DNA of 64,000 nt from NCBI RefSeq assembly GCF_041821025.1, contig NZ_JBGUAY010000002.1, positions 1 through 64,000 on the forward strand, given 5' to 3'. Numbering within the stretch: position 1 is the stretch's first letter; every line of letters begins with the position of its first letter. Of the stretch, positions 9,028 to 63,385 are shown one piece after another. The notes under the pieces were generated by a model. The model made no database searches and had not been told where the DNA came from. It saw nothing but the letters and a program-made list of their open reading frames with translations. The position numbers were made by a program, and so were the translations under genes. The stretch comes from Egicoccus sp. AB-alg6-2. Lineage in GTDB: Bacteria; Actinomycetota; Nitriliruptoria; Nitriliruptorales; Nitriliruptoraceae.

Positions 9028-10293
9028 ATGGCACCGCAGGAGTCACCGCAGGCGCAGGTCGCCGAGACCGCACCGGGCACGAAGGCACCGTCGGTCCGCT
9101 CCGAGGTCGGGGCGCTTCGCACCGTGCTGCTGCACCGTCCCGGCACCGAGGTCGAACGCATCACCCCAAGCAACATGGACCAGTTGCTGTTCGACGAACT
9201 GCTGTGGGTCGAGCACGCCCAACTCGAACACGACGCCTTCGCCAAGGTCCTGGGCGGCCTCGGCGTCGAGGTGCTCTACGTCGAGGAACTGCTCGCCGAG
9301 GTCGTCGCCGACCCCGAGGTCGCCCGCGCGGTCGTCGAGCGCCACGTGACCGACCGCACCTGCGGCCCGCAGGCGGTCGAGCGGGTCCGCGACCTGCTGC
9401 TGGACACCGAACCACGTCAGCTCGTCGAGCACCTGATCGGCGGGGTGACCGTCGAGGAGGTCGGTCCCGGCGACGGCCTGGTCACCGCCGTCAGCGGCCC
9501 GTCCGAGATGCTGCTGCAGGCACTGCCGAACGCGGTGTTCACCCGCGACTCGTCGGCCTGGATCGGTGAGGGGGTCGTGCTCTCGCCGATGAACCGGCTC
9601 GTACGCCGGCGGGAGACCGACCTGTTGCGCACCGTCTACTCGCACCACCCGAGGTTCGCCGAGCACCCGATCTGGTTCGGCGGCGAGGTGACCGACTACT
9701 TCCCGGCCACCTTCGAGGGCGGCGACCTGCTGGTCGTCGGCGACCGCGGCCTGGCCGTCGGCATGTCGGAGCGCACCAGCCCCGCCGGGGTCGAGGCACT
9801 GGCGACCGCGCTGTTCGACGCCGGCGTCGTCGACCGCGTGCTGGCGGTCGACCTGCCCAAGGTGCGCGCGGCGATGCACCTCGACACGATCGTGACGCAG
9901 GTCGACGTGGACGCCTTCATCACCTACCCGACGATGACGGCCAGCCTGCGCAGCTACGCCGTCACGCCGCGACCCGGCGGCGGGATCCACGTCGCCGAAC
10001 GCCAGGGGTTCGTGCAGGGGCTGGCCTGGGCGGCCGGACTCGACCACGCCAGGGCGATCGAGCCGGCCCTCGGCTCGGTCCGGGCCGAACGCGAGCAGTG
10101 GAACGACGCCAACAACACCCTCGCCGTCAGCCCGGGCGTGGTGGTGGCCTACGAGCGCAACGTCGCGACCAACGAGATCCTCGAGACGGCAGGCGTCACG
10201 GTCCACACCATCCCGTCCTACGAGCTGCCGCGTGGCCGTGGTGGGCCGCGGTGCATGTCGTGTCCGGTGCAGCGCGATCCACTGGGAACGTGA
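9028..10293 (+). CDS. arcA: Arginine deiminase (ArcA)
   Basis: 421 residues from ATG 9028 with GGGGAG six bases upstream; an in-frame GTG lies two codons earlier. It hydrolyses L-arginine to citrulline and ammonia. Family motifs are complete: LRTVLLHRPG at the N-terminus, ALPNAVFTRDSS, TFEGGDLLV, HLDTIVTQVD and the catalytic Cys near residue 409 in GGPRCMSCP. No ornithine carbamoyltransferase, carbamate kinase or antiporter gene is adjacent, so this is not a standard arcABC operon. It could release nitrogen or protect against acid; the coupling to the NYN gene is unexplained. Confidence 0.95.
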   Translation: MAPQESPQAQVAETAPGTKAPSVRSEVGALRTVLLHRPGTEVERITPSNMDQLLFDELLWVEHAQLEHDAFAKVLGGLGVEVLYVEELLAEVVADPEVARAVVERHVTDRTCGPQAVERVRDLLLDTEPRQLVEHLIGGVTVEEVGPGDGLVTAVSGPSEMLLQALPNAVFTRDSSAWIGEGVVLSPMNRLVRRRETDLLRTVYSHHPRFAEHPIWFGGEVTDYFPATFEGGDLLVVGDRGLAVGMSERTSPAGVEALATALFDAGVVDRVLAVDLPKVRAAMHLDTIVTQVDVDAFITYPTMTASLRSYAVTPRPGGGIHVAERQGFVQGLAWAAGLDHARAIEPALGSVRAEREQWNDANNTLAVSPGVVVAYERNVATNEILETAGVTVHTIPSYELPRGRGGPRCMSCPVQRDPLGT

Positions 10294-10318
10294 CTTCAAA
10301 CGATTGCAGCGCTAGCTT
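10290..10318 (+). promoter_or_regulatory. Promoter with LacI-type operator before the EamA transporter
   Basis: GTGACT (10290-10295) and TAGCTT (10313-10318) are spaced by 17 bp. Between them lies TTCAAACGATTGCA (10295-10308), a mixed member of the operator family recurring through this window. The promoter overlaps the last codons of arcA. Confidence 0.55.
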
Positions 10319-10347
10319 GCGCCGATCGTAGGCAGAGCCGGAGGCGC

Positions 10348-11238
10348 GTGGTGGCAGGGGTCGTTCCGGCGCTGCTCGCCGCCGTCGCCTTCGCCGTCTA
10401 CCAACTGGTCAACCGGCGGGCGCTGCTCGGCGTCGATGTCTACCGCGGGACCTCGACGGTCATGGGCGTCGGCGCGGTGCTGCTGCTGCTGGTCGCGGGC
10501 CTGACCGGTGGGCTCGCGCTCGTCCCCTCGGCGCCGCTCACCTCGCTGCTGCTGTGCGCGGCCGCCGGCTTCGTGCACTTCTTCTGCGGCTGGACCTTCC
10601 TCGGTTGGAGCCAGGTCCGCCTCGGCGCCGCCCGCACCGGCATCCTCATCGGCACCGTCCCCCTCTTCGGTGCCCTGATCGCCGCGCTCGCGCTCGGTGA
10701 GGCGCTCTCGCCCCAGGACGTCGTCGGTCTGCTGGTGGTCGTCAGCGGCGTCGCCATCGTCAGCGCGCGACGCGGTGCCGCCGACACCCCGGTGGCGGAC
10801 GCGAGGCTGGGCGTGGCCGCCGGACTCGCGACCGCACTGTGCTGGTCGTCGTCGCCGGTCCTCATCCGCCGTGGGCTCGAGGGGCTGCCGTCGCCGCTGG
10901 CGGGCGCGGCCATCGGCATGCTCGCCAGCGCGGTCGTCTACGGCCTCGCGGTGCTGCTCACCCGCCGGCGTGCACGGCGCTCCGTGGTGGAGCCGGGGAC
11001 CCGCCGCCTGCTGCTGATCGTGGGGCTGGCGGCGTCGTTCGCGATCTGGATGCAGTGGACGGCGTTCGACCTCGCTCCCGTCGCCACCGTGCTGGCACTG
11101 CTGCAGCTGACGCCCATCACCGTGGTCGTGCTGGCATCGCGGATCGGCGGCGACCGGCTCACCGGGCGGGCGCAGCAACGGGTGCTGCTGGGCGCCGCCC
11201 TCACGGTCTCCGGATCGCTACTGCTCGTCCTCGGCTGA
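10348..11238 (+). CDS. EamA-family (DMT) transporter
   Basis: 296 residues, GTG start at 10348 after GGAGG. Ten hydrophobic segments form two EamA repeats (residues ~1-140 and ~150-296), with typical repeat ends at AALALGEALSPQDVVGLLVVVSG and, at the C-terminus, ALTVSGSLLLVLG. The family exports amino acids, metabolites or drugs; the substrate cannot be read from the sequence. The last 21 bp overlap the 3' end of the convergent nitrile-hydratase-beta-like gene. The operator just upstream suggests control by one of the LacI regulators of the island. Confidence 0.85.
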   Translation: MVAGVVPALLAAVAFAVYQLVNRRALLGVDVYRGTSTVMGVGAVLLLLVAGLTGGLALVPSAPLTSLLLCAAAGFVHFFCGWTFLGWSQVRLGAARTGILIGTVPLFGALIAALALGEALSPQDVVGLLVVVSGVAIVSARRGAADTPVADARLGVAAGLATALCWSSSPVLIRRGLEGLPSPLAGAAIGMLASAVVYGLAVLLTRRRARRSVVEPGTRRLLLIVGLAASFAIWMQWTAFDLAPVATVLALLQLTPITVVVLASRIGGDRLTGRAQQRVLLGAALTVSGSLLLVLG

Positions 11239-11511
11239 GTCTCCCTCGGCGGGGCGCAGCCACTCCTCGTGCAGGTCGGCCAGCACCTGGTCGTGCGGCG
11301 CCCGGCCGTCGTCGAGGTCGAACAGCACCGAGTACAGCGGTGGGTAGGCCTGCCGGTGGTCGAGGGGGTTGTCCACGATCCCGTGGCGCCGCACGATCGT
11401 GCCGATGCGCCCGCGCAGGTAGTTCGGCGTGCGCGGGTTGCCGTCGGTCACGTCGTCGAGCACCTGCACACGTTGTCCCGTCCGCAGGTGCCCGACGTCG
11501 TGCTCGTCCAT
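11218..11511 (-). CDS. Stand-alone nitrile hydratase beta C-terminal (SH3-like) domain protein
   Basis: 97 residues. The sequence fits the C-terminal SH3-like domain of nitrile hydratase beta or the small subunits of thiocyanate hydrolase: GQRVQVLDD, then NPRTPNYLRGRIGTIVRRHG, then LYSVLFDLDD and DLHEEWLRPA. A full beta subunit is about 220 residues, so its N-terminal helical half is missing here. It lies downstream of the alpha-type gene, the R1 regulator gene and a CMD-family gene, all on the minus strand, which supports a shared role. In the families the SH3-like part packs on the alpha subunit near the metal site. The ATG at 11511 has only a close GGAG, so expression may depend on upstream translation. 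Confidence 0.75.
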   Translation of the reverse strand: MDEHDVGHLRTGQRVQVLDDVTDGNPRTPNYLRGRIGTIVRRHGIVDNPLDHRQAYPPLYSVLFDLDDGRAPHDQVLADLHEEWLRPAEGDSAEDEQ

Positions 11512-11519
11512 GCTCCGTC

Positions 11520-11576
11520 GCCCGTGCTCAGTCGCTCGCGCTCAGTCGTTGGTGCTCAACCGTCCGTGCTCAGTAT
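11520..11576. repeat. Short imperfect repeats of gtgctcagtcg
   Basis: Four or five imperfect copies of an 11-12-bp unit built on gctcagtcg fill the gap between the SH3-like gene and the CMD-family gene. No hairpin or start signal is apparent. Confidence 0.4.
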
Positions 11577-11582
11577 TCCGGC

Positions 11583-12218
11583 TCAGTGGCTGTGCGCCCA
11601 GTAGTCCTCCGACGCCTTGCTCTGCTGCAGCGCGTCGGCGGACTCGAACCCCGGCGCCATGGAGGCCGTCGTACCCGCCATGAACTGGTGGTGGTCGATG
11701 CCGAGCAGCCGGATCCAGCTCTGCTGGCCCAGCGTCAGGCCGATCGCGCAGCCGAGCTCGACCAGTTCGGCTTCGCTGAAGTGCTGGTGCAGCCGCTTCC
11801 ACAGCAGCTCCAGCTCGCCCTCGGCGCCCGGACCCCAGGCGATGGCCTGCGCATAGGCGAGCGCCGCCTTCTGCCGCTCGTCGTAGCGGTCGGACGACTC
11901 GAAGTTGAGCAGCTCGTCGTACTGCGCCTCCTCGAGCCCGGCCTTCAGCGCCTTCTCCGAGCGCTGGTTGCCGCAGTACTCGCACTTGACGGTTCGCGAG
12001 ATGTAGACCCGGCACAGGTCCTTCAACTCGTGCTCGACCACGCCCTCGTGGAACAGCGCCTTCCACGAGTCGGCGAAGAACCAGAACGCGGCCGGAACGT
12101 GGGCTCGCACCGCGCTGCTCTCGGGGCGTGGGGTCCCTTCCCGGGCACAGCGCGCCATCTCCTCGCGCATGCGCTCGTCCATGTCCTCGAGCGGGACGTA
12201 ACTGATCTGCTGTTCCAT
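11583..12218 (-). CDS. Carboxymuconolactone decarboxylase/AhpD-like protein with CxxC
   Basis: 211 residues from ATG 12218 behind GGAGGGAG; an in-frame ATG at 12281 lies upstream of the operator and is unlikely. The all-helical AhpD fold shows the redox pair in VKCEYCGNQRSEKAL (Cys-Glu-Tyr-Cys) and the typical LCRVYISRTV helix before it. Members are either decarboxylases or CxxC thiol peroxidase/reductase-type proteins; the intact CxxC favours redox chemistry. It sits between the alpha-type and beta-type nitrile hydratase genes. A possible task is handling the oxidised Cys ligands of the alpha metal site, which is inference only. An operator lies 22 bp upstream of the start. Confidence 0.8.
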   Translation of the reverse strand: MEQQISYVPLEDMDERMREEMARCAREGTPRPESSAVRAHVPAAFWFFADSWKALFHEGVVEHELKDLCRVYISRTVKCEYCGNQRSEKALKAGLEEAQYDELLNFESSDRYDERQKAALAYAQAIAWGPGAEGELELLWKRLHQHFSEAELVELGCAIGLTLGQQSWIRLLGIDHHQFMAGTTASMAPGFESADALQQSKASEDYWAHSH

Positions 12219-12239
12219 GTCGGCTCCCTCCGGCGGCGA

Positions 12240-12253
12240 TGTAATCGATTGCA
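12240..12253. promoter_or_regulatory. LacI-type operator (ATCGAT class) before the CMD-family gene
   Basis: TGTAATCGATTGCA, centred on CG at 12246-12247. It lies between the proposed minus-strand promoter (12266-12294) and the GTG/ATG region of the CMD-family gene, at about +5 to +18, a position suited to repression. Confidence 0.75.
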
Positions 12254-12265
12254 GAACGTCTCCAC

Positions 12266-12294
12266 ACGGAACCATGTGCACGTCGTCCCGTCAA
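12266..12294 (-). promoter_or_regulatory. Proposed promoter for the CMD / beta-like genes
   Basis: On the minus strand TTGACG (12289-12294) is followed after 17 bp by TTCCGT (12266-12271). The -35 hexamer is good and the -10 weak; support comes mainly from the operator lying immediately downstream, the same layout as at three stronger promoters in this window. Confidence 0.4.
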
Positions 12295-12326
12295 GAGCTC
12301 GACGGCGCGGCTGCCGAGGCCCGCCG

Positions 12327-13409
12327 TCAGGGCACCGCCGGTGGCGCAGCGGTGGAGGCCCGGACGAGGAGGTGCGTCTCGACCGTGTGGACGGCCGTGG
12401 GCGTCGCGTCCTGATCCGCCGACGTCCCGTCCTGATCCGCCGACGTCACGCCTTCAGCCACCGACGTCGCGTCCCGTGCGGTGAGCTGTGCCAGCAGGAC
12501 GTTCGCCGCCACGCTGCCGAGGCGCTCGTGGTCGATGCGCACCGTCGTCAGTGGCGGGTCGAGCAGGTCGACGAACTGCATGTCGTTGAAGCCGGTCAGC
12601 GAGACGTCGTCCGGGACCCGGCGACCCAGTTCGCGCAGCGCGCGCAGGCAACCGACGGCGACGAGGTCGTTCGCGGCGACCAGCGCGGTCAGGTCCGGGC
12701 GTCGGCGCAGCAGGGCGCCGGCGGCCCGATGCCCCTCGTCGACGGTGAGCCGGCGCGTCGTCTCGACGTCGGCGGGCGACGCGACGCCGGATGCGGCCGT
12801 GACGGCCAGGAAGGCGCGGGCGCGGTTGCGGCCCGTGGAGATCTCCGGCGGCCCGGCGACGTGTCCGAGCCGACGGTGCCCGAGCTCGAGCAGGTGGGCG
12901 ACCACGCGTTCGACGCCGCCGGTGTCGTCCGGCACGACGCTCGGCAGCGGCAGACCGCTGCCACGGTTGATCAACACGACGGGGAGGTCGGGCGGCGTGG
13001 CCGGCCGCCAGTCGGGATCCAGCCGGGCCGTCGCGAGCAGGAGTCCCTCGACCTGCCGCGCCAGCATGGCGCGGATCACGACACGTTCGCGGGCCGGGTC
13101 GTTGTCGGTGTTCGACACCACCAGGGTGTAGTCGCTGGCACCGAGTGCGTTCTCGATCGCCCGGACCACCGGCGGCATGAAGGGATTGGTCAGGTCCGGA
13201 ACGAGCATGCCCAGGGTCGCCGAGCGCTGTCGACGCAAACCTCGGGCGACGAGGTTGACCTCGTAGCCGAGCTCGTCGGCCGCCCGCCGGATGCGGCTGA
13301 CGGTCTCGGGGCGCAGGCTGTCGGCGGTTGCCTGGTTCAGTGCCCGCGAGACCGTCGCGACCGACACGCCCGTGGCCGCGGCGATGTGGGCCATCGTGGG
13401 TCGGGCCAT
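12327..13409 (-). CDS. LacI-family transcriptional regulator (R1)
   Basis: 360 residues. The N-terminus is the LacI helix-turn-helix (MAHIAAATGVSVATVSRALN) followed by the hinge VARGLRRQRS. Residues ~62-330 form the periplasmic-binding-like effector domain (LGMLVPDLTNPFMPPVVRAIE, INRG, LELGHRRLGHVAGP, LVAANDLVAVGCLRAL, DVSLTGFNDMQFVDLLDPPLTTVRI). It closely resembles R3 and R4 in this window. The C-terminal tail contains a duplicated SADQD segment from an 18-bp in-frame DNA duplication near 12410-12450. It lies between the nitrile-hydratase-like genes and is the natural candidate to bind the operators at 12240 and 14521; this is inference. Confidence 0.92.
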   Translation of the reverse strand: MARPTMAHIAAATGVSVATVSRALNQATADSLRPETVSRIRRAADELGYEVNLVARGLRRQRSATLGMLVPDLTNPFMPPVVRAIENALGASDYTLVVSNTDNDPARERVVIRAMLARQVEGLLLATARLDPDWRPATPPDLPVVLINRGSGLPLPSVVPDDTGGVERVVAHLLELGHRRLGHVAGPPEISTGRNRARAFLAVTAASGVASPADVETTRRLTVDEGHRAAGALLRRRPDLTALVAANDLVAVGCLRALRELGRRVPDDVSLTGFNDMQFVDLLDPPLTTVRIDHERLGSVAANVLLAQLTARDATSVAEGVTSADQDGTSADQDATPTAVHTVETHLLVRASTAAPPAVP

Positions 13410-13454
13410 GTGACGGCAAGCCCTTCGGCGCGGCAGGACGACAGGGCGCGCAGC

Positions 13455-14483
13455 CTACGCGGGGGCCGACCCGGGCGGGGGCACCAGCGCCGCCCCGACC
13501 AGGCTCTCGGCGGTGACGAGTTCCGCCAGGGCGTCCTCGTCCATCCCCTCGGTGCCGTCGGGGCGTTGGGGCAGCACCATCCAGCGCACGTCCGAGGTCG
13601 AGTCGTGGACCCGGACGCGGACCTCGTCGGGCAGGTCGATGCCGAACATGTCGCGGATCGTGGCGCGTGGGTCGCGGACGATCCGTTCCTTGTAGGTGTC
13701 GGTGCGGTACCACCAGGGCGGGTTGCCCAGCAGGTCGTGGGGATAGCACGAGCACAGCGTGCACACCACGATGTTGTGGACCTCGTCGGTGTTCTCCGCG
13801 ACCCCGAGGCGCCCCAGCTTTCCCGGCGGGATGTCCAGCTCGCGGACCGCCTCCCGTCCGGTGGCGATCAGGCGCTCCTTGAAGGCGGGGTCGAGCCACG
13901 CCCGGGCGGTGATCCGCGCACCGTTGCGGTGGTCGATCCGCGACAGCTCCTGCCGGCGCGCCTCGAGCTGCTCGGAGGTGATGCGCCCCCGACGGAGCAT
14001 CGCGGTCGTGAACGCCTCGAGCAGCCGGTGGGCGTCGTCGAGTTCGCCGGCGACGGCGGCCAGGCGCTCGTCGAGCTCGCCCTTGCCGAGGTCGCGCGGC
14101 GCGATCTTGAAGAACGGGTCGTAGTCGCCCCGCTCGCGCCGCGTGTCGTCGATCGCGACCGGCTCGGCGCCCTGGTGGGGGACGGTCACCGTGGCGATCC
14201 CGCGCACGAGCCGGTCGAGCTCGTCCTCGACGAAGCGGATCGGGCCGTCCGCGTCCGCCCAGCTGCGCTCGTGCCAGGGCGTGGCCGTGGTGTGGTCGGG
14301 TGCCGCGGCGAGCAGGTCGGCGAAGGTGATGATGCCGCGCCGCAGGAAGTGCAGGACGCGTGACTCGAGCCGCTTGCGCCGGAAGTACTCGAAGTCGGTC
14401 TCGACCGCCCGCACGTGCCCCTCGGGGTCGTGGATGTGGACGTGACCGCCCCCGTGGTCGTCGTGGTCCCCGTGTGCGCTCAT
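13455..14483 (-). CDS. Nitrile hydratase alpha-type protein with His-rich N-terminus and 150-residue extension
   Basis: 342 residues against about 200 for a normal alpha subunit. Residues ~150-335 are the alpha fold with the metal-claw motif VCTLCSCYPHDLLGNPPWW; the Thr in CTLCSC is typical of cobalt enzymes. The tail RWMVLPQRPDGTEGMDEDALAELVTAESLVG also matches. The first 25 residues are extremely His-rich (MSAHGDHDDHGGGHVHIHD), suggesting metal storage or delivery, and residues ~30-145 are a helical extension I cannot assign. The reaction in the family is nitrile to amide (or thiocyanate hydrolysis). No P14K/P47K-type activator is visible nearby. The ATG at 14483 follows GAGGACGAG. Confidence 0.85.
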   Translation of the reverse strand: MSAHGDHDDHGGGHVHIHDPEGHVRAVETDFEYFRRKRLESRVLHFLRRGIITFADLLAAAPDHTTATPWHERSWADADGPIRFVEDELDRLVRGIATVTVPHQGAEPVAIDDTRRERGDYDPFFKIAPRDLGKGELDERLAAVAGELDDAHRLLEAFTTAMLRRGRITSEQLEARRQELSRIDHRNGARITARAWLDPAFKERLIATGREAVRELDIPPGKLGRLGVAENTDEVHNIVVCTLCSCYPHDLLGNPPWWYRTDTYKERIVRDPRATIRDMFGIDLPDEVRVRVHDSTSDVRWMVLPQRPDGTEGMDEDALAELVTAESLVGAALVPPPGSAPA

Positions 14484-14520
14484 GACGGCTCGTCCTCGAT
14501 GTGGTGGATCGACGGGTCAT

Positions 14521-14534
14521 AGAAATCGATTGCA
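14521..14534. promoter_or_regulatory. LacI-type operator before the nitrile hydratase alpha-type gene
   Basis: AGAAATCGATTGCA; the right half is perfect and the left half degenerate. On the minus strand a TATGAC -10 candidate sits at 14516-14521, but -35 candidates are spaced 15 or 20 bp away, so the promoter is uncertain. The site could also influence the divergent M24 operon. Confidence 0.6.
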
Positions 14535-14660
14535 CATCGGAAGGCAAGCGCCGAACACGAGTCCGGTCGCGCCCCGCTGCGCCGAGCGCGCAGTCGCCGT
14601 GGCCCGACGCGCGGAGGTGGCGTGCCGCCGCGGGATCCGACACCGTGGGCGGGCCATGCC

Positions 14661-14690
14661 TTGACGCCCCCGAGGCGGGTGTTCTATCTT
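14661..14690 (+). promoter_or_regulatory. Promoter of the M24 / E1 / aldehyde dehydrogenase operon
   Basis: TTGACG (14661-14666) and TATCTT (14685-14690) with an 18-bp spacer. The expected start site near 14697 is directly followed by a perfect operator, and the first start codon lies about 70 bp downstream. Confidence 0.7.
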
Positions 14691-14702
14691 GAGCAGCGGA
14701 AA

Positions 14703-14716
14703 GCAAACGTTTGCAC
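14703..14716. promoter_or_regulatory. LacI-type operator (AACGTT class) of the M24 operon
   Basis: AGCAAACGTTTGCA with a perfectly palindromic 12-bp core. It covers about +6 to +19 of the promoter at 14661-14690, a position where bound repressor blocks initiation or early elongation. Confidence 0.85.
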
Positions 14717-14766
14717 GGCACACGGGGCGTTCGAACCGGTGGCCGCGCCCGGGAGGGGAGACGACG

Positions 14767-16017
14767 GTGGTGGAGTTCGCGCAGAGCGGTATCGCGGCCC
14801 CAGGGATCCAGCAGGTGGACTGGGAACAGCGGGTCGACATGGACCGGCTGCGGAACTACCGGCTGCAGCGCGCCAAGGCGGCGCTGGAAGCCAGCGACCT
14901 CGGCGCCGTGCTCGTGTTCGAGACCTCCAACGTGCGCTACCTCACGGCGACGCACATCGGCACCTGGGCCTACAACAAGACCGAGCGGTGGGCGCTGCTC
15001 ACGCGCGGCGGCTCACCGTGGATCTGGGACTTCGGCTCGGCCGCGAAGAACCACCGCATGTACTCGCCCTGGATCGACAGCTCGCAGTCGCTGGGCGGCA
15101 ACCTCGGCCTGCAGGGGGCGATCGCGCCGACCTCCGGGCTGCCGAAGAACGCGGCCCAGGAGATCGCGGCCATCCTGCGCGAGGAGGGCGTCGCGGACAT
15201 GCCCGTCGGCGTCGACACCGTCGAGGTCGCGGTCCTGCGCGAGCTCGAGGCGGCCGGCATGGACGTCCGCGACGGCCAGCAGGTGATGCTCGACGCCCGC
15301 GAGATCAAGAACGCCGACGAGATCATGCTGCTGAGCCAGGCGGCGGCGATGGTGGACGGCGTCTACCAGGACATCTCCGAGGTGCTCAAGCCGGGGGTGC
15401 GCGAGAACGACATCGTCGCGCTCGCGACCAAGCGGTTGATCGAGATGGGCTCGGAACAGGTCGAGGCGATCAACTCCATCGCCGGCGAGCGCTGCAGCCC
15501 TCACCCGCACGTGTTCTCCGACCGCTACGTGCGCCCCGGCGACACGGCCTACTTCGACATCATCCACGCCTACAACGGCTACCGCACCTGCTACTACCGC
15601 ACCTTCGCGGTCGGGCGCGCCACCCAGGCCCACCACGACGCCTACGCCAAGGCGCGCGAGTGGATCGACGCCGCCATCCAGGCCGTCAAGCCGGGCGTCG
15701 GCACCGACGAGATCGCCCGGCTGTGGCCCAAGGCCGAGGAGTTCGGCTTCGACTCCGAGATGGAGGCGTTCGGGCTGCAGTTCGGCCACGGGCTCGGACT
15801 CGGACTCCACGAACGTCCGATCATCTCGCGCCTGAACTCGATCGAGACCCCCGTCGAGATCAAGGAGGGCATGGTGTTCGCCCTCGAGACCTACTGCCCC
15901 GCCTCGGACGGCCGCTCCGCCGCGCGCATCGAGGAGGAGATCGTCGTGACCGCCGACGGCGCCGAACTGCTGACGCTGTTCCCGGCCGAAGAACTGTTCA
16001 TCACCAACAAGTACTGA
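14767..16017 (+). CDS. M24-fold metallohydrolase-like protein (Xaa-Pro peptidase/DddP-like) with altered metal site
   Basis: 416 residues from GTG 14767 behind GGAGGGGAG; the open frame upstream crosses the operator and is not expected to be translated. It has a creatinase-type N-terminal domain (~1-190) and a pita-bread catalytic domain. Normal M24 ligands are D, D, H, E, E. Here Asp264 (YFDIIHAYNGY), His341 (FGHGLGLGLHE), Glu374 (FALETY) and Glu389 (RIEEEIVV) remain, but the second Asp is replaced by Cys275 (GYRTCYYRTF). The N-terminal layout resembles the DMSP lyase DddP by memory; a peptidase or a lyase/hydrolase of small molecules is possible. First gene of the operon with E1 and aldehyde dehydrogenase. 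Confidence 0.82.
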   Translation: MVEFAQSGIAAPGIQQVDWEQRVDMDRLRNYRLQRAKAALEASDLGAVLVFETSNVRYLTATHIGTWAYNKTERWALLTRGGSPWIWDFGSAAKNHRMYSPWIDSSQSLGGNLGLQGAIAPTSGLPKNAAQEIAAILREEGVADMPVGVDTVEVAVLRELEAAGMDVRDGQQVMLDAREIKNADEIMLLSQAAAMVDGVYQDISEVLKPGVRENDIVALATKRLIEMGSEQVEAINSIAGERCSPHPHVFSDRYVRPGDTAYFDIIHAYNGYRTCYYRTFAVGRATQAHHDAYAKAREWIDAAIQAVKPGVGTDEIARLWPKAEEFGFDSEMEAFGLQFGHGLGLGLHERPIISRLNSIETPVEIKEGMVFALETYCPASDGRSAARIEEEIVVTADGAELLTLFPAEELFITNKY

Positions 16018-16034
16018 GACGAAGGCCTACCAAC

Positions 16035-18136: not shown

Positions 18137-18139
18137 CGC

Positions 18140-54575: not shown

Positions 54576-54591
54576 CGCGATCGGCGTCCGG

Positions 54592-55230: not shown

Positions 55231-55240
55231 GGTAGCCGGG

Positions 55241-55621
55241 TCAGTCCCGCGACGGTCCCAGGTCGGGGCCGTCCAGCTCCTCGAGGTTGGCGGCCAGGTC
55301 CGGGTGCGGGAAGAAGCACAACAGTTCGAGTTCCACGCCGGGGTCGGGCAGCGTCGCGTGCGCCGCCCCGGCGGGGACCAGGAACGTGTCGCCCGGTGCG
55401 ACGGCGGTGCGCCCGCCGTCGACCCAGGCGGTCCCCGTCCCGGACAAGACGTGCACCACCTCGACGCTGTGGGGGTGGCGATGCGGGCGCCGGTCCGCGT
55501 CGGGGTACAGACGGACCTGGCGCACGCTGACGGGAACGCCGGGGAAGGCCGCGAACGGGTCGGCGGCGTCCCGCCCCGGCAGGGGCCGGAACTCCAACGC
55601 GTCCCGCGGTCCGAGCAGCAT
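55241..55621 (-). CDS. Small cupin-domain protein
   Basis: 126 residues from ATG 55621, overlapping the stop of the Gfo/Idh/MocA gene (TGATG). A single cupin barrel with RRPHRHPHSVEVVHVLSGTG and PAGAAHATL gives the usual three His and one Glu metal ligands. Possible roles are isomerase, dioxygenase or sensing; no substrate is evident. Confidence 0.82.
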   Translation of the reverse strand: MLLGPRDALEFRPLPGRDAADPFAAFPGVPVSVRQVRLYPDADRRPHRHPHSVEVVHVLSGTGTAWVDGGRTAVAPGDTFLVPAGAAHATLPDPGVELELLCFFPHPDLAANLEELDGPDLGPSRD

Positions 55622-56688: not shown

Positions 56689-56707
56689 GCGCTTCCCTTT
56701 CGCGTGG

Positions 56708-57478: not shown

Positions 57479-57505
57479 CGGTTGGCCTCTCGTGACGGGT
57501 CGGTA

Positions 57506-58468
57506 TCAGGTCGGGTCGACGACGACGTCGTCGGGTCGCTCGCCACGTAGCAGCGCCTCCGCGGCCCGGGCCGCCTTCTGTCGCATGTCCGCCTCGGACT
57601 CCTCGCTGTACCACGCCGTGTGGGGCGTGAGCACCACCTGGTCGGCGACGGCGTCGAAGCGGCTCGCGTCCACCGGCTCCTGCGCGTGCACGTCCAGTGC
57701 CGCCACCGCCGGCCGCCCCGTCCGCAGCGCCGTCACCAACGCGTCGGGATCGATCAGCGAGCCCCGGGCGGTGTTGACGAGCACGCTGCCGGGGCGGCAG
57801 TTGGCGAGCTCGGCGGCGCCGAGGAGGGGTGTGCCGTCGGCGTTGCCTGGTACGTGCAGGCTGACCACGTCGGCGGCGGCGAGCAGGTCGTGCAGGTCGG
57901 CCACCTGCTCGTGCCCTTCGGCCACCTCGGAGACGAACGGGTCGTGGACCAGGACCCGGAAGCCGATGCCGGCGAACAGTCCGGCCGCGTAGCGACCGAT
58001 GCGGCCGTACCCCACCACCGCGGCGGCACTGGCCGAGGGAAGGTGCAGCGGGCGCAGGTGGTCGAAGCCCCAGTTGCCCGCCCGCACCCAGCGGTCGCTG
58101 GCGACGACCCGCCGGAAGCCGCTCATGGCGAGGGCGAGCGCGTGCACGGCCACGGCCTCGGTGCCGTAGTCGCTGACGCGAGCGACCCAGATGCCCTGCT
58201 CCCGGGCCGCGTCGAGGTCGATCGAGTCGGTGCCGATCCCGTAGCGCACGATCCCACGACACGACAGGCGGGCCAATACCTCGGCGTCGAAGCGTGGCCG
58301 GGAGCCGCACAGGATCAGCTCCGCCTCACCGGCGACCGCCAGGATCGCGTCCGCGTCGGCGCCGTCGCCGGTGACCAGGCGCACGTCGTGGTCGGCCAGG
58401 ACGGCTTCCTCGATGGACAGGTCGGGATAGCGCGTGCCGAGGACGGCAACCACGGTCTCGCCCAACAC
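57506..58468 (-). CDS. D-isomer-specific 2-hydroxyacid dehydrogenase
   Basis: 320 residues, GTG 58468 behind GAGGGAGGG. NAD site VVGYGRIGRYAAGLFAGIGFRVLVHDPF and the catalytic residues Arg in NTARGSLID, Glu in DVHAQEP and His in LTPHTAWYSEES are present. It reduces or oxidises a 2-hydroxy/2-oxo acid; the class also includes C-terminal-binding-protein-like members. It is the first gene of a minus-strand operon and has an operator 33 bp upstream. Confidence 0.9.
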   Translation of the reverse strand: MLGETVVAVLGTRYPDLSIEEAVLADHDVRLVTGDGADADAILAVAGEAELILCGSRPRFDAEVLARLSCRGIVRYGIGTDSIDLDAAREQGIWVARVSDYGTEAVAVHALALAMSGFRRVVASDRWVRAGNWGFDHLRPLHLPSASAAAVVGYGRIGRYAAGLFAGIGFRVLVHDPFVSEVAEGHEQVADLHDLLAAADVVSLHVPGNADGTPLLGAAELANCRPGSVLVNTARGSLIDPDALVTALRTGRPAVAALDVHAQEPVDASRFDAVADQVVLTPHTAWYSEESEADMRQKAARAAEALLRGERPDDVVVDPT

Positions 58469-58500
58469 CGCCCTCCCTCGCTCCCGTCACCAACCTAGGC

Positions 58501-58514
58501 GACAATCGATTGCA
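58501..58514. promoter_or_regulatory. LacI-type operator (ATCGAT class) before the 2-hydroxyacid dehydrogenase operon
   Basis: GACAATCGATTGCA with a perfect CAATCGATTG core (58503-58512), 33 bp upstream of the GTG on the minus strand. A TACCTT -10 candidate lies upstream but its -35 is unclear. Confidence 0.78.
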
Positions 58515-58556
58515 CGCCAAGGTATGTCCAGCAGGACGCACACGCCGGCGTCCAGG

Positions 58557-59801
58557 TCACGCCGGTCGCAGCGCCGCCAGCAGGGCCCCCGGGTCGAAGT
58601 CGGCGGGGTCCACCACGGGCGGGCGCCCGGGAAGGGGCGGTGCCGGATACTTGGCACCGATGCCGGTGTCGAAGACGACGACGCGTTCGTCGCGACCGAT
58701 CCAGCCCGAGGCACGCAACTCCCCGGTGGCGGCGACGACCGCGGCGGTCTCGGGACTGACGTAGCCGGCGCCGTGCGCCCCCGCGAGCAGTTGCGCCCGG
58801 TCGATGTCGGCCTCGTCGACGGCGACCGCCGTTCCCTCGGAATCCCGCAATGCCTGCAGGATGAGCCGGTCGCCGACGGCCCCCGGCACGCGGATGCCGC
58901 CGGCGCGGGTGGTCGCCCCCTGCCAGGGTTCGGCCTCGAGGTCGCCGCGCTCGAAGGCGCGCACGATCGGTGCGCAGCCGGTGGCCTGCACGGCGACCAT
59001 GCGGGGGCGCCGGCCCGTGACCAGGCCGAGGGCCTCGAGCTCCGCGAAGGCCTTCCACATCCCGACCAGACCGGTGCCGCCACCGGTGGGGTAGAGGATC
59101 ACGTCCGGCAGCTCCCAGCCGAACTGCTCGGCGAGTTCGAGCCCCATCGTCTTCTTGCCCTCGACCCGGTAGGGCTCCTTGAGGGTCGAGACGTCGAAGG
59201 CGCCGGTCAGCGCCGCCAGTTGCGCTCCCACGCGGCCGCAGTCGCTGATCAGTCCCTCGACCAGGATCAGCTCGGCGCCGCACACCAGCACCTCGACCTG
59301 GTTCACCTCGGGCGCGTCGACGGGCATCAGCACGGTCGCCGGCAGGCCCGCGGCGGCGGCGTAGGCCGCAAGCGCGCCGGCGGCGTTCCCTGCCGAGGGC
59401 GCGATGAAGCTCGTGGCGCCCAGTTCGGCGTTGCGGGACACGGCGGCGGTCATGCCGCGGGCCTTGAACGACCCGGTGGGATTGCCGCCCTCGGCCTTGA
59501 TCCGGAGATCGCCCAGGTCGAGGCGGTGGCCGAGTCGCGGCGCCGTCACCAGCGGGGTGTCGCCCTCGCCGAGGTGCACGATCGCCGCGGGGTCGCGGAC
59601 CGGCAGCAGCTCGCGCCACCGCCACAGGCCCCGCGGACGTTCCCGCAGCGACGCGGGGGTCAGGGTCCGGGCCGCCGCCTCGAGGTCGTAGGTCGCGAGC
59701 AGGGGCCGGTCGTCGACCGGGTCGAGCCGGTGCAGCTGGTCGGCGTCGTACGCCTCGCCGGAGCTGGAACCGTGCAGCGAGACGAGGGTCGAGTCGGGCA
59801 T
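58557..59801 (-). CDS. Threonine-synthase-like PLP-dependent enzyme (fold type II)
   Basis: 414 residues, ATG 59801 behind GGAGAG. The PLP Lys is in AEGGNPTGSFKARGM, the Asn-containing loop is APSAGNAAGALAAYAA and the phosphate site is YPTGGGTGLVGMWKA. The order and the N-terminal domain match the threonine synthase (ThrC) branch. As last gene of the molybdenum-hydroxylase operon it may be a catabolic lyase or a dedicated amino-acid enzyme rather than the housekeeping ThrC; this is inference from context. Confidence 0.87.
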   Translation of the reverse strand: MPDSTLVSLHGSSSGEAYDADQLHRLDPVDDRPLLATYDLEAAARTLTPASLRERPRGLWRWRELLPVRDPAAIVHLGEGDTPLVTAPRLGHRLDLGDLRIKAEGGNPTGSFKARGMTAAVSRNAELGATSFIAPSAGNAAGALAAYAAAAGLPATVLMPVDAPEVNQVEVLVCGAELILVEGLISDCGRVGAQLAALTGAFDVSTLKEPYRVEGKKTMGLELAEQFGWELPDVILYPTGGGTGLVGMWKAFAELEALGLVTGRRPRMVAVQATGCAPIVRAFERGDLEAEPWQGATTRAGGIRVPGAVGDRLILQALRDSEGTAVAVDEADIDRAQLLAGAHGAGYVSPETAAVVAATGELRASGWIGRDERVVVFDTGIGAKYPAPPLPGRPPVVDPADFDPGALLAALRPA

Positions 59802-59816
59802 GGGGACTCTCCGGAC

Positions 59817-60839
59817 TCAGGAAGCGCCGGGCGCGGCCGTCGACTGGCGCACCACCAGCTCGGGGGCGAGTTCGACCGCCTTGCGGGCGCGGCGGGCGGG
59901 CGGATCGTCGAGCAGCCCCAGCAGCAGCTCGCCGGCCCGACGTCCCATCTCGTACTGCGGGATGCGCACGGTCGTCAGCGGCGGATCGATCAGGTCCACG
60001 AGCGGCATGTCGTTGAAGCCGACCAGCGACACCTCCTGCGGCACCCGGCGGCCGGCCGCCCGCAGCGCCCGCAGACAGCCGATCGCGAGCAGGTCGTTGG
60101 CGGCGCAGATCGCCGTGACGTCGGGGTGCTGCTCGAGCAGGCGCTGGCACGCCTCCATGCCGTCGCCGACGGCGAAGATCGCGGCGTGCTCGACCAACGC
60201 GGGGTCGTAGACCCCGGCGTCGGTGGCGAAGGTCTCGAACGCCTCGGCCCGGCTGCGTCCGGTGGAGGTGTCGGTCGGTCCGGCGACGTGCGCGATCCGC
60301 CGGTGGCCGAGGTCGAGCAGGTGTCGGACGGCCAGCGTGACCCCGGCGGCGTCGTCGGGGACCACGGCCGGCACGGACGGATCGGTCCCACGACGGTTGA
60401 CCAGCACGACCGGGAGGTTGCCGACGGCCGCGGTGCCCTCGTCGCTGTCGAGGTGGGAGGTCGCGACGACCAGGCCGTCGACCTGGCGGCCGACCAGGCT
60501 CTGCAGGCTGCGTGCCTCGCGCCGGGCGTCGTTGTCGGTGTTGGTGACGATGAGCGTGTAGCCGCCCGCGTCCAGCGCGTCCTCGAGCCCGCGCACGATG
60601 GGCGGGAAGAACGGATTGGTGAGGTCGGGCAGCAGCATGCCGACCGTGTGCGAGCGCTGGGTCCGCAGTCCGCGGGCGAGCACGTTGGGCTGGTAGCCGA
60701 GCTCGCTGGCCGCGGCGAGCACGCGCTCGACCGTCTCCGAGCGCAGCATGGCCGCGGTGCGCTCGTTGAGCGCCCGCGACACCGTGGAGACGTCGACACC
60801 CGCGAACCGGGCGACGTCGGACATCGTCGTCTTGGCCAT
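59817..60839 (-). CDS. LacI-family transcriptional regulator (R4)
   Basis: 340 residues, ATG 60839. Helix-turn-helix TTMSDVARFAGVDVSTVSRALN, hinge VLARGLRTQRSHTVG, then the effector domain (MLLPDLTNPFFPPIVRGLED, VNRRGTDPSVPAVVPDDAAG, CAANDLLAIGCLRALRAAG, LVGFNDMPLVDLIDPPLTTVRIP). It is highly similar to R1. It lies inside the molybdenum-hydroxylase operon, so it can control that operon and autoregulate through the operator at 63372. Confidence 0.93.
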   Translation of the reverse strand: MAKTTMSDVARFAGVDVSTVSRALNERTAAMLRSETVERVLAAASELGYQPNVLARGLRTQRSHTVGMLLPDLTNPFFPPIVRGLEDALDAGGYTLIVTNTDNDARREARSLQSLVGRQVDGLVVATSHLDSDEGTAAVGNLPVVLVNRRGTDPSVPAVVPDDAAGVTLAVRHLLDLGHRRIAHVAGPTDTSTGRSRAEAFETFATDAGVYDPALVEHAAIFAVGDGMEACQRLLEQHPDVTAICAANDLLAIGCLRALRAAGRRVPQEVSLVGFNDMPLVDLIDPPLTTVRIPQYEMGRRAGELLLGLLDDPPARRARKAVELAPELVVRQSTAAPGAS

Positions 60840-60885
60840 GGTGGGGGACCCTAGGCCAGCGCGCCGGAAGCCGCCGTGAAGCGGT

Positions 60886-61953
60886 TCAGAGCCGGCCTCC
60901 GAGGTGTTGCGCCATCCAGTCCGCCGTGCGGTAGCGGTAGGCGTGGGCGCGGTTGTTGGCGACGTGGTTGCCGTCCTCGATGACCAGCAGCTCGGTCGGC
61001 CCGGTGGCCTCCGTCGCCAGCCGCTCGGCGGCCTGCCAGGGCACCAGTCGGTCGAGCTTGCCGGTCACCACGAACAACGGGCACGAGATCTGCGGTGCGG
61101 CGTCGACCAACGTCAGCGAGCGGCCGTGCTCGCGCGCCTCGTCCTGCGTCGCCAGGTGGGACCGGACCCGGAACGCCTCCCTGGTCAGGTCGGGGAGCGC
61201 GTCCCATCCGGCCTCCCAGTCGTAGGGCCCCGACAGCGAGATGCAGGCCCTGACGCGCTTCTCGAACGCGGCCGCCCGGGGGGCGTAGTAGCCGCCGAGG
61301 CTGACGCCCCACAGCCCGATGCGGTCGCCGTCGAGGTCGGGTCGTGCCTGCAGGTGGTCGACCACGGCCGCGACCGGGACCTCGTAGTCGCCGCGGATGG
61401 GCAGGTCGTACTCCGCCTCGCCCTGGCCCGGTCCGTCGAAGGCGAACGTGGCCAGCCCGCGGGCGAGGAACAGCTGCTCGTACGCGTGCATCTCCTCCTT
61501 CGCGGAGTCGAGCCCCATGCACATCACGACGACGGGCGGACGTTCGACGCCGGACGGTCGCCGCAGGTTGCCGTACAGGGAGGTGCCCTCGAAGGGGACG
61601 GCCACGCGTTCACCCGGCGGGTCCACGAGGGCGAGGGCGTCGGTGCGGCACGCCACCGCACGACGGTGCGCCGCACGCATCTCCTCGACGTCCTGCACGA
61701 ACAGGAACTTGCCGAAGTGGTAACAGACCGCCGCCGTCGTCAGGTGCGCACCGGCGCTCTGTCGCCGGCCGGCGTCCAGTGCCTCGCGACCCAGCTGCTC
61801 GTGCATGCCGGCGCGCTCGGCCCAGGCCCCGCACCACTCCTCCCACCGTTCCACGCCACCGGTGACCTCCTGGAAGTCGGTCAGCGGAACCCCGTTGGCG
61901 ACGAACCGGGGGGCCCAGTGGCTGATGGCGGCGGTGACGCGCTCGTCGGTCAT
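60886..61953 (-). CDS. Alpha/beta hydrolase, 2,6-dihydroxypseudooxynicotine-hydrolase-like, resembling 53490-54575
   Basis: 355 residues, ATG 61953 overlapping the CoxM-type stop. Helical N-terminal domain (~1-110), then FAFDGPGQGEAE, nucleophile Ser218 in GVSLGGYYAPRAA, Asp301 in GKLDRLVP and His330 in EDGNHVANN. In the nicotine pathway of Paenarthrobacter the enzyme of this type acts after a molybdenum hydroxylase (KdhLMS), and here too it is encoded in one operon with CoxS- and CoxM-type subunits. The substrate may differ. Confidence 0.9.
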   Translation of the reverse strand: MTDERVTAAISHWAPRFVANGVPLTDFQEVTGGVERWEEWCGAWAERAGMHEQLGREALDAGRRQSAGAHLTTAAVCYHFGKFLFVQDVEEMRAAHRRAVACRTDALALVDPPGERVAVPFEGTSLYGNLRRPSGVERPPVVVMCMGLDSAKEEMHAYEQLFLARGLATFAFDGPGQGEAEYDLPIRGDYEVPVAAVVDHLQARPDLDGDRIGLWGVSLGGYYAPRAAAFEKRVRACISLSGPYDWEAGWDALPDLTREAFRVRSHLATQDEAREHGRSLTLVDAAPQISCPLFVVTGKLDRLVPWQAAERLATEATGPTELLVIEDGNHVANNRAHAYRYRTADWMAQHLGGRL

Positions 61954-62831
61954 GGTCGTGGCTCCGGGTCCGGGACGTCGAGGTCGAGCGCCCGGCCGAG
62001 GGCGCGGGCGGTCAGGACGCGCGCGAGGTGGCGGCGGAAGGCGGCGTCGGCGTTGCTGTCGCTGGGGGGCGAGGTGTCGACGTCGGCCAGCGCGGCTGCC
62101 GCGGCGATCGCGGCCGGCTCCGCGGGACCACCGCGCAGCGCACCCTCGGTGGCCGTCGCACGCAGGGGTACCTCGCCCATGTGCGTGAGCCCGACGCGAA
62201 CGTCGGCGATCCGTCCCTGCTTACGGCGGACGAGCGCGCAGGCGCCGACGACGGCCCACGCGTGCGACACGGGCGCGAACTTCTCGTACGCCCACGACCA
62301 CCCGGCGAGGTCGGGCACACGGACGGCCAGCAGCACCTCCTCGGGCGCGAGCACCGTCTGCAGGTGCCCGGTGAAGAAGTCGGCGGCGCGGACCCGGCGG
62401 CGACGCTTCTGGCTCGCCAGCACGAACTCCGCGTCGAGGGCACGGGCGAGGGCCGGCAGGTCACCGGCGGCGTCACCGTGGGCCATCGCGCCACCGATCG
62501 TCCCGCGGTGCCGGACCTGCGGGTCGCCGATCCGCCGCACGACCGCGGCCAGTGCTCCGCAGCGCGCGGCCAGCACGGGCGCGTCGATCACGTCCTGGTG
62601 GGTCGTCGCGGCACCGATCTCGAGGTGGTCGCCGTCGACACGTACGCCGCGGAGGGCCTCGACGCGGCCGATGTCGATCAGCACCCCCGGTGTCGCGAGG
62701 CGGAACTTCATCAGCGGCAGCAGGCTCTGCCCGCCGGCGAGGAGCTTCGCGTCGTCGCCGTGCTCGTACAGCGCCGCCACGACGTCGTCGACCGTCTCCG
62801 CCCGGTGGTAGTCGAAGGCCGCCGGGAACAC
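61950..62831 (-). CDS. Molybdenum hydroxylase, FAD-binding medium subunit (CoxM/KdhM type)
   Basis: 293 residues, GTG 62831, one base after the CoxS-type stop. The PCMH-type FAD site shows KLLAGGQSLLPLMKFRLA and TIGGAMAHGDAAGDLPALARALDAEF. It passes electrons from the iron-sulfur subunit to FAD. Its 3' end overlaps the hydrolase gene by 4 bp. Confidence 0.92.
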   Translation of the reverse strand: MFPAAFDYHRAETVDDVVAALYEHGDDAKLLAGGQSLLPLMKFRLATPGVLIDIGRVEALRGVRVDGDHLEIGAATTHQDVIDAPVLAARCGALAAVVRRIGDPQVRHRGTIGGAMAHGDAAGDLPALARALDAEFVLASQKRRRRVRAADFFTGHLQTVLAPEEVLLAVRVPDLAGWSWAYEKFAPVSHAWAVVGACALVRRKQGRIADVRVGLTHMGEVPLRATATEGALRGGPAEPAAIAAAAALADVDTSPPSDSNADAAFRRHLARVLTARALGRALDLDVPDPEPRP

Positions 62832-62832
62832 C

Positions 62833-63321
62833 TCAGGCCCCCGGCTGCGCGGCGAGCTCGTCGGCGGCCTGGCGCACCGCCGCCACGATGGGCGCGTACC
62901 CGGTGCAGCGGCACAGGTTGCCCTCGAGGCCTTCGCGGATCTCGGCGTCCGAGGGGCGTGGGTTGTGGTCGAGCAGGTCCTTGGCGGCCATGATCATGCC
63001 CGGGGTGCAGTACCCGCACTGGAGCGCGTGGCAGTCCCGGAAGGCCGACTGCAGCGGGTGCCAGGCCGCGGGCTCGTCGGGCGGTGTGAGACCCTGCACC
63101 GTCGTCACCTCGCAACCGTCGGCCTGCACGGCCAGCACCGTGCAGCTCTTCACGCTGCGACCATCGAGGAGCACCGTGCACGCGCCACAGTTGGTCGAGT
63201 CGCAGCCGACGTTGACCCCTGTACGGTCGAGGTCGTCGGTCAGCAGGTGGACCAGCAGCACCCGGGCGTCGACGTCACGGGTCACGGCGTCGCCGTCCAC
63301 GGTCAGTCGAATCGATGGCAT
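62833..63321 (-). CDS. Molybdenum hydroxylase, 2Fe-2S small subunit (CoxS/KdhS type)
   Basis: 162 residues, ATG 63321 behind GGAGGGG. The plant-type [2Fe-2S] Cys set (GCDSTNCGACTVLLDG and a fourth Cys in KSCTVLA) and the second cluster set (QCGYCTPGMI and NLCRCTGY) are complete. First gene of the minus-strand operon through CoxM, hydrolase, R4 and the PLP enzyme; divergent from the CoxL-type gene. Confidence 0.94.
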   Translation of the reverse strand: MPSIRLTVDGDAVTRDVDARVLLVHLLTDDLDRTGVNVGCDSTNCGACTVLLDGRSVKSCTVLAVQADGCEVTTVQGLTPPDEPAAWHPLQSAFRDCHALQCGYCTPGMIMAAKDLLDHNPRPSDAEIREGLEGNLCRCTGYAPIVAAVRQAADELAAQPGA

Positions 63322-63371
63322 GCTGCCCCCTCCCGCGTCCGCTTCAGGGCGATGCTAACGTAACGCGCGGT

Positions 63372-63385
63372 ATCAATCGATTGCA
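63372..63385. promoter_or_regulatory. LacI-type operator (ATCGAT class) between CoxS- and CoxL-type genes
   Basis: ATCAATCGATTGCA with a perfect CAATCGATTG core (63374-63383), central in the 107-bp gap between the divergent subunit genes. It can coordinate both transcripts. On the minus strand TTGCAA (63381-63386) and TTACGT (63358-63363) with 17 bp between form a weak promoter candidate. Confidence 0.8.

What the first reader, a model, noticed from the sequence alone, without database searches (positions are those of the whole stretch)
10290..63385. Fifteen related LacI-type operators mark a coherent catabolic regulon family
The window holds 15 sites matching TGCAA(A/T)CG(A/T)TTGCA, in two main classes (central AACGTT and ATCGAT) plus hybrids; 10 have a perfect CAAWCGWTTG core. 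Assuming 70% GC my own estimate is well under one such core by chance in 64 kb. All lie in intergenic or promoter positions of the 10-64 kb island, with four LacI regulators interspersed. The two classes differ by one symmetric base pair, suggesting either distinct regulators or deliberate cross-talk.
Basis: partly seen in the sequence, partly recalled or inferred. Interest (0 to 1): 0.75.

Follow-up and report, generated by a model that had tools for sequence, protein, structure and literature searches.

The report
LacI-type switch sites across a catabolic island
A 56-kilobase block of genes, probably for breaking down non-sugar compounds, carries four related repressor genes and about fifteen copies of one DNA switch site that is almost absent from the rest of the genome; the mechanism looks ordinary, but the small differences between copies make a good natural test of how such repressors read DNA.

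Summary
All 10 perfect CAAWCGWTTG cores of the 3.74-Mb genome lie in this block. Fifteen good sites are all intergenic. Fourteen have counterparts in a sister species with the same centre. Another sister species lacks the block and has no perfect core.

R1-R4 belong to one LacI clade. Among 66 genomes of the class, 19 of 20 with a clade member have cores, against 12 of 46 without. TTGAC boxes pile up upstream of the sites, which points to repression.

The two classes differ at the base pair beside the central CG (NT-2). One relative (G020) has a single LacI-family gene yet cores of both classes and hybrids, so distinct regulators are not required. Lys55 regulators never had a symmetric T site next to them (0 of 17). 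Arg55 regulators often did: 11 of 12 counting perfect cores, but only 7 of 12 under the scoring rule fixed later, and 10 of 12 in a plasmid set. Counterexamples exist. This is a tendency, and the link NT-2/AA-55 was already published.

Verdict: a real LacI subfamily regulon for non-sugar catabolism, with an ordinary mechanism.

The parts
10295..10308 (.). operator, hybrid centre (ACGA), upstream of EamA-type transporter gene 10348-11238(+)
   Evidence: hybrid centre in the same orientation in G041
12240..12253 (.). operator, T class, upstream of 11583-12218(-)
   Evidence: T class in G041
14521..14534 (.). operator, T class, upstream of nitrile-hydratase-alpha-like gene and R1 (-)
   Evidence: T class in G041, paired by gene order, not by alignment
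14702..14715 (.). operator, A class, upstream of M24 / 2-oxoacid dehydrogenase E1 / aldehyde dehydrogenase genes (+)
   Evidence: A class in G041, paired by gene order
19898..19911 (.). operator, A class, upstream of the branched-chain-type ABC transporter genes
20021..20034 (.). second operator, A centre, with one mismatch that is also present in G041
28099..28112 (.). operator TGCAACCGTTTGCA between divergent amidohydrolase genes; likely promoter of the R2 operon
   Evidence: identical in G041
33786..33799 (.). operator, A class, upstream of NMT1-type ABC transporter genes
   Evidence: no orthologous region found in G041
37720..37733 (.). operator, A class, downstream of a TTGACA box, upstream of the dehydrogenase / M24 genes
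41631..41644 (.). operator, T class, between E2 acyltransferase gene and MFS / M24 / TauE genes
46110..46123 (.). operator, A class, upstream of R3 (autoregulatory)
   Evidence: A class in G041, paired by gene order
46287..46300 (.). operator TGCAACCGATTGCC, middle of the R3/ABC intergenic region
   Evidence: same in G041
46479..46492 (.). operator, T class, upstream of the second NMT1-type ABC operon
58501..58514 (.). operator, T class, upstream of the D-2-hydroxyacid dehydrogenase / creatininase-like genes (-)
63372..63385 (.). operator, T class, between divergent Mo-hydroxylase genes; likely promoter of the operon holding R4
12327..13409 (-). R1, LacI-family regulator (V15 A16 R20, hinge R55, PurR numbering)
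31348..32403 (+). R2, LacI-family regulator (V S R, R55)
44950..45972 (-). R3, LacI-family regulator (P S R, K55)
59817..60839 (-). R4, LacI-family regulator (V S R, R55); ortholog next to PEP carboxykinase in G042
10348..64000 (.). catabolic island (runs to about C2:66770): amidohydrolases, nitrile-hydratase-like, M24 proteins, 2-oxoacid dehydrogenase, Mo-hydroxylase, FrsA-like hydrolases, ABC/MFS transporters; absent at this place in G042

Best explanation
The island is a self-contained regulon family. R1-R4 are members of one LacI-family clade and bind, most likely as homodimers, the even palindrome TGCAA-N-CG-N-TTGCA. Operators lie around or just downstream of the -10 region, so bound repressor blocks transcription of the transporter and catabolic operons and of the regulator's own operon; a pathway compound (unknown, probably not a sugar) would release it. 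The four share nearly the same recognition helix, which reads the arms. The two 'classes' are the NT-2 base pair beside the central CG, next to hinge residue 55. R3 (Lys55) should favour AACGTT and hybrid centres and disfavour ATCGAT, R1/R4 (Arg55) should accept ATCGAT, with graded overlap and not strict insulation. Shown here: sites, their exclusivity, conservation, promoter position, clade membership and a residue-55 tendency. Inferred: binding, repression, inducer, and which regulator acts at which site.
For: 10 of 10 genome cores lie in the island, which G042 lacks. Between G000 and G041, 14 of 14 paired operators keep the centre while flanks are 57% identical; where both species have A/T in flanks 214 of 254 agree, so 26 unchanged W positions has a chance of 0.012, or 0.032 for the 20 in the 11 sites that align. 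Cores track the clade in 66 genomes: 19/20 versus 12/46 (inputs). 70 of 73 cores are intergenic. 25 of 44 TTGAC boxes found within 100 bases of 70 sites lie 31-51 bases before the operator centre. R1-R4 and relatives are one side of a branch, SH-aLRT 97. Residue 55: Lys 0 of 17 with T/T; Arg 11 of 12 (perfect cores), 7 of 12 (rule), 10 of 12 in the plasmid set.
Against: No binding or expression data. The residue-55 result depends on the rule: in four R5-type loci a weaker, nearer site without a perfect core wins under the rule fixed later, so Arg55 drops to 7 of 12 T/T, and to 3 of 8 without the four rows assigned through their operon promoter after seeing the data. Under that rule 13 of 17 Lys55 rows have an A half; the other four have C or G. 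Only 2 independent K/R switches on well-supported branches, 4 at most, so relatedness is not excluded. R2 (Arg55) has an ACCGT centre. At operon level Skermanella and Cupriavidus campinensis (Arg55) carry A/A sites and Streptomyces YIM 121038 (Lys55) a T site. G020's Lys55 regulator comes with 3 T/T cores. In G042 an R4 ortholog exists with no perfect core. 74 genome matches at 3 mismatches against 40 for the control show that weak sites alone mean little.
Confidence: 0.66

Rival explanations
1. The flanking base pair is simply free (W): every regulator of the clade binds every site and the classes mean nothing; the island is one pooled regulon with cross-regulation by all four proteins.
For: G020 has one LacI-family gene and 14 cores of all types. 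Over the 70 intergenic cores the types are 36 hybrid, 17 A, 17 T, what independent W positions would give. Recognition-helix residues are similar. The residue-55 tendency weakens under a stricter rule.
Against: Centres unchanged at 14 of 14 paired sites, chance 0.012 to 0.032 if W were free. The island genus has 2 hybrids among 14 distinct cores against 33 of 47 elsewhere, p 0.0004, relatedness not corrected. Lys55 0 of 17 with T/T.
Confidence: 0.35
2. The two symmetric classes belong to two strictly separate regulators (insulated paralogs), and hybrids are bound by heterodimers.
For: Symmetric sites dominate in the genus that has R1, R3 and R4 together; an A site stands next to R3 and T sites at the likely R1 and R4 operon promoters.
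Against: Hybrids dominate in G020, where only one LacI-family gene was found, so heterodimers are not needed there; T/T cores occur there with a Lys55 protein; the R3/ABC gap holds A, T and ACCGA sites together.
Confidence: 0.1
3. The sites are spread by recent duplication of island DNA (copies by descent, not selected operators).
For: All 10 perfect cores sit in one island; R1, R3 and R4 are paralogs.
Against: Flanks of the 10 window sites show no evident likeness by eye (no alignment was run) and sites persist in diverged promoters of other genera.
Confidence: 0.03

Closest known systems
LacI/GalR family operators and the LacI recognition code (Camas, Alm, Poyatos 2010, PMC2978694; abstract, outline, sections 6, 7, 9 and found passages seen)
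   Same: Even palindrome with central CG; Arg20 with G at NT-6; NT-2 variation statistically linked to AA-55, AA-15 and AA-5; autoregulation
   Different: The text I saw gives no Lys/Arg-to-base rule; here Lys55 avoids T/T centres and Arg55 often has them, with exceptions
PurR / RbsR of gammaproteobacteria (Glasfeld et al. 1999 on PurR Lys55: only its citation was seen; PurR and RbsR operator letters recalled)
   Same: GCAAA-CG half-site; RbsR models give R4's best NCBIfam scores; PurR is among the solved relatives
   Different: R4 is far below the RbsR and PurR cut-offs (231.4 of 382 and 180.4 of 501 bits); the neighbourhood is neither ribose nor purine
LacI-family regulons in RegPrecise (Ravcheev et al. 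2014, PMC4052901; abstract, outline and passages seen), including PckR of Rhizobiales
   Same: Local autoregulated regulons; multiple sites per promoter; PckR links a LacI protein to PEP carboxykinase, as suggested here at C2:68592 and in G042
   Different: They report 96% carbohydrate effectors; this clade sits with other catabolic genes. PckR sequence and motif were not compared

Membership tests
LacI/GalR transcription factor family | N-terminal LacI HTH plus periplasmic-binding-protein-like sensor domain | tested here: met
   R1-R4 all above Pfam cut-offs for PF00356 and Peripla_BP models
LacI/GalR transcription factor family | even palindromic operator with central CG in promoters | tested here: met
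   15 sites, all intergenic
LacI/GalR transcription factor family | direct binding of the operator, changed by an effector | not testable with these tools
   no assay possible
LacI/GalR transcription factor family | regulation of sugar use (typical, not defining) | tested here: inconclusive
   no carbohydrate-specific family among the island proteins scanned, apart from broad families such as GFO/IDH/MocA; four ABC subunits were not scanned
RbsR (ribose repressor) | score above the NCBIfam equivalog cut-off | tested here: not met
   R4 231.4 bits, cut-off 382; R1-R3 not scanned
PurR (purine repressor) | score above the NCBIfam equivalog cut-off | tested here: not met
   R4 180.4 bits, cut-off 501; R1-R3 not scanned
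PckR (Rhizobiales PEP carboxykinase regulator) | orthology and shared motif | not tested
   no PckR sequence or motif letters were held; only a functional resemblance through PEP carboxykinase
strict AA-55 / NT-2 code | Lys55 never with T/T, Arg55 always with T/T | tested here: not met
   Arg55 exceptions G048, Ensifer, Bosea, four R5-type loci under the rule; operon-level exceptions Skermanella, C. campinensis, Streptomyces

The most novel reading that the evidence does not exclude
After duplication inside one island, paralogous LacI repressors split an ancestral hybrid operator into two symmetric channels by a Lys/Arg change at hinge residue 55 paired with an A/T change beside the central CG, giving partly insulated control of sub-pathways while keeping graded cross-talk.
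Probability: 0.25. Interest if true: 0.6.

Novelty: new member of a known kind. Interest (0 to 1): 0.42.

Why it matters
It ties a LacI clade, from a family mostly known for sugars, to a large catabolic island that looks non-sugar, and supplies natural contrasts (one regulator with all site types; four regulators with sorted sites) in which the published but unresolved NT-2 / residue-55 contact can be measured directly.

Tried and rejected
Heterodimers as the reason for hybrid sites: not needed, because of G020. Promoter direction as the reason for asymmetry: hybrid orientation toward genes was 15 against 18, no bias. Recognition residues 15/16 and residue 5 as cause of the classes: by eye they do not sort with the classes. 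A literature search for the operator letters listed 30 of 45 papers: by title, those on bacterial gene regulation include PurR and MalR (LacI-family) work but nothing on such an island. Searches on LacI and aromatic catabolism, on Nitriliruptor/LacI and on Lys55 listed no description of this regulon; only listings were seen for these, except the passages of PMC1781455.

A pre-registered test (note) found no new proteins (5 of 27 genomes, all already known). I replaced it with plasmid records, same scoring rule, chosen after that failure: 16 loci were fetched, 15 of the 23 listed hits at 40% identity or more, plus H26 at 37%; the list showed 60 of 1260 records. It tested Arg55 only, since both Lys55 loci lacked a site under the rule.

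Exploratory tally: 29 of 45 rows; 16 rows without a T/A call were dropped, among them R2 of G000 and of G041 (ACCGT), G303b (a T site at -716, outside the rule) and the Solirubrobacterales protein (Ala55). R1, R4, G041_R4 and G054_R2 were assigned by operon promoter. G320 and G291a are another LacI type (His20). Other corrections made then: distinct cores of the island genus are 14, not 13, and TTGAC boxes in range 25, not 24. Superseded scripts: wrong strand; one search is right; wrong starts; one search is right.
Full report
OBSERVATION. CAAWCGWTTG occurs 10 times in the window (0.04 expected from shuffles) and 10 times in the whole 3,737,302-base genome: every copy lies at C2:10,297-63,383. 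With the 14-mer TGCAAWCGWTTGCA, 9 genome sites have at most one mismatch (7 in the window, one at C2:68592, one at C3:419637) and 18 have at most two (14 in the window). All 15 are intergenic in my gene calls; the other three window matches with 3 mismatches are coding or weak (34326, 57458, 63307). The C3 site lies in DNA that is open in several frames and 18 kb from the nearest LacI match on its contig, so it may be chance.

REGULATORS. The genome has 10 LacI-type HTH matches, four of them in the island. R1-R4 share 38-55% identity with one another and 29-37% with five of the others (21-25% with L010, a poor match); they carry two residues more after the recognition helix than most of the others, which L007 also has. 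With their relatives they fall on one side of a branch, SH-aLRT 97 (29 rows of 53). None of the six other LacI matches lies in the island, and all ten perfect cores do, so the motif goes with this clade.

ISLAND. In G042, of the same genus, the genes flanking the island (arginine deiminase at 9028 and PEP carboxykinase at C2:66942) sit together with a single LacI gene between them, 70% identical to R4 (Pfam). The island is therefore about C2:10,300-66,800. G042 has no perfect core. I cannot say whether G042 lost the island or the window's lineage gained it. A degenerate site stands upstream of PEP carboxykinase in both species (CCAACGATTGCA in G000, CCAACGTTTGCA in G042), and in G042 the R4 ortholog is the next gene downstream of PEP carboxykinase (gene table). 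This suggests that PEP carboxykinase belongs to the same regulon; it is inference.

GENE CONTENT (four ABC subunits not scanned). EamA and MFS transporters, two NMT1-type and one branched-chain-type ABC systems, a nitrile-hydratase-alpha-like protein and a small beta-C-terminal-like protein, two carboxymuconolactone-decarboxylase-like proteins, three amidohydrolases (26387, 28204, 50812), three M24 proteins, 2-oxoacid dehydrogenase E1 alpha/beta and E2, an aldehyde dehydrogenase most like succinate-semialdehyde dehydrogenases, a creatininase-like protein, two FrsA-like hydrolases, a Mo-hydroxylase of the CO-dehydrogenase type. No carbohydrate-specific family appeared beyond broad ones such as GFO/IDH/MocA. 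The substrate is not identified. On named plasmids, where records are annotated (11 of 16; 5 are not), some relatives stand beside dioxygenases (annotated as catechol or intradiol type in several), branched-chain-type or TRAP transporters, or (Streptomyces YIM 121038) an M24-like peptidase, alpha-ketoacid dehydrogenase, succinate-semialdehyde dehydrogenase and NAD(P)-dependent oxidoreductase (annotations as written).

COMPARATIVE TESTS. (a) Among 66 genomes of the class, those with a clade LacI (best R4 match E <= 1e-56, a cut I chose after seeing the table) have cores in 19 of 20, the others in 12 of 46, p 2e-7 (inputs). The reversed control pattern totals 20 over the class, 11 of them in G026, which also has 17 forward matches. 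(b) 70 of 73 cores in the fetched loci are intergenic, coding fraction 0.867. Loci were partly chosen because they hold cores, so (b) tests position, not frequency. (c) Fourteen operators could be paired between G000 and G041 and all keep their centre, including a hybrid, ACCGT and ACCGA. Eleven align; 14521, 14702 and 46110 were paired by gene order. Flanks are 57% identical; 214 of 254 flanking positions with A/T in both are the same base, giving 0.012 for 26 unchanged W positions or 0.032 for the 20 in aligned sites. One window operator (33786) had no orthologous region, and two G041 cores (C107:5487, C220:18498) have no counterpart. (d) TTGAC occurs 44 times within 100 bases of 70 sites, both strands, 25 of them 31-51 bases before the operator centre; at 29 sites with one possible target, TTGAC occurs 14 times on the gene's strand and once on the other within 60 bases. 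The operator thus sits about where RNA polymerase starts, typical of repression.

THE TWO CLASSES. They differ at NT-2, beside the central CG. Camas et al. 2010 (PMC2978694) found NT-2 linked to AA-55, AA-15 and AA-5. In this clade AA-55 is Lys in R3-type and Arg in R1, R2, R4 and R5-type proteins, with single exceptions such as G279 and G157. First tally, taking perfect cores and, for four rows, the operon promoter: Lys55 17 of 17 not T/T, Arg55 11 of 12 T/T, exception G048. Second tally, under the rule written down later (fewest mismatches to TGCAANCGNTTGCA, then nearest): Lys55 0 of 17 T/T (13 of 17 have an A half), Arg55 3 of 8, p 0.024, or 7 of 12 with the four operon rows, p 0.0005. The drop comes from G047, G050, G062 and G064, where a site without a perfect core (mostly [CT]GCTATCGTTTGCA) lies nearer the gene than the symmetric T site. 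These p values ignore relatedness; only 2 well-supported independent switches exist. Two telling single cases: G279 (R3-type but Arg55) has TGCAATCGATTGCA; G157 (R2/R5-type but Lys55) has TGCAAACGTTTGGC. A planned new sample was empty. The substitute plasmid sample gave Arg55 10 T/T and 2 hybrid of 12 with a near site, 4 of 16 loci without one; most of the T/T rows are closely related rhizobial proteins. Operon-level counterexamples in the same call: Skermanella and C. campinensis (Arg55, A/A), Streptomyces (Lys55, T). So: tendency, not code.

ONE REGULATOR, ALL TYPES. G020 (95% complete, 6% contamination) has exactly one PF00356 match, an R3-type protein, and 14 cores: 9 hybrid, 3 T, 2 A; two of the 14 lie inside my gene calls. 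One homodimer evidently serves all types, unless a second gene hides in the missing part. In the island genus symmetric sites prevail (2 hybrids among 14 distinct cores of G000 and G041, against 33 of 47 in the other fetched loci, p 0.0004, relatedness not corrected).

ASSIGNMENT (inferred). A class, R3-favoured: 14702, 19898, 20021, 33786, 37720, 46110. T class, R1/R4-favoured: 12240, 14521, 41631, 46479, 58501, 63372. Hybrid or C-containing, open: 10295, 28099 (likely promoter of the R2 operon), 46287.

VERDICT. The mechanism is that of ordinary LacI repressors. What is new is the member: a clade with island-bound operators beside what looks like non-sugar catabolism, and a natural test case for the NT-2 / residue-55 contact. 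Novelty in print was judged only by the searches, in an open-licence library that lacks most subscription journals.

Noticed in passing
C2:68592-68605 (beyond the window; L011) and L068:12017: Degenerate operator about 115 bases upstream of a PEP carboxykinase gene in two species; in G042 the R4 ortholog follows that gene directly.
   Followed up: partly
L083:11060-11100: A Solirubrobacterales relative with Ala55 has three operators in tandem 13 bases apart downstream of its LacI gene, the outer two with G at NT-2 (CAAGCGCTTG).
   Followed up: no
window 11218-14483: Nitrile-hydratase-alpha-like gene with a His-rich N-terminal extension, separated from a beta-C-terminal-like gene by R1 and a carboxymuconolactone-decarboxylase-like gene.
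   Followed up: no
window 14767-16017: M24 protein scores with the DMSP lyase DddP model (E 4.7e-37) but far below its cut-off (127.8 of 600 bits).
   Followed up: no
L024-L027, about 30-40 bases before the LacI gene: Four R5-type regulators have a second similar site, [CT]GCTATCGTTTGCA, besides the CGCAATCGATTGC core site.
   Followed up: partly
L124, L127: A different LacI type (His20, Lys55) has two operators 12 bases apart just before its gene, with hybrid or A centres.
   Followed up: no
   Followed up: no
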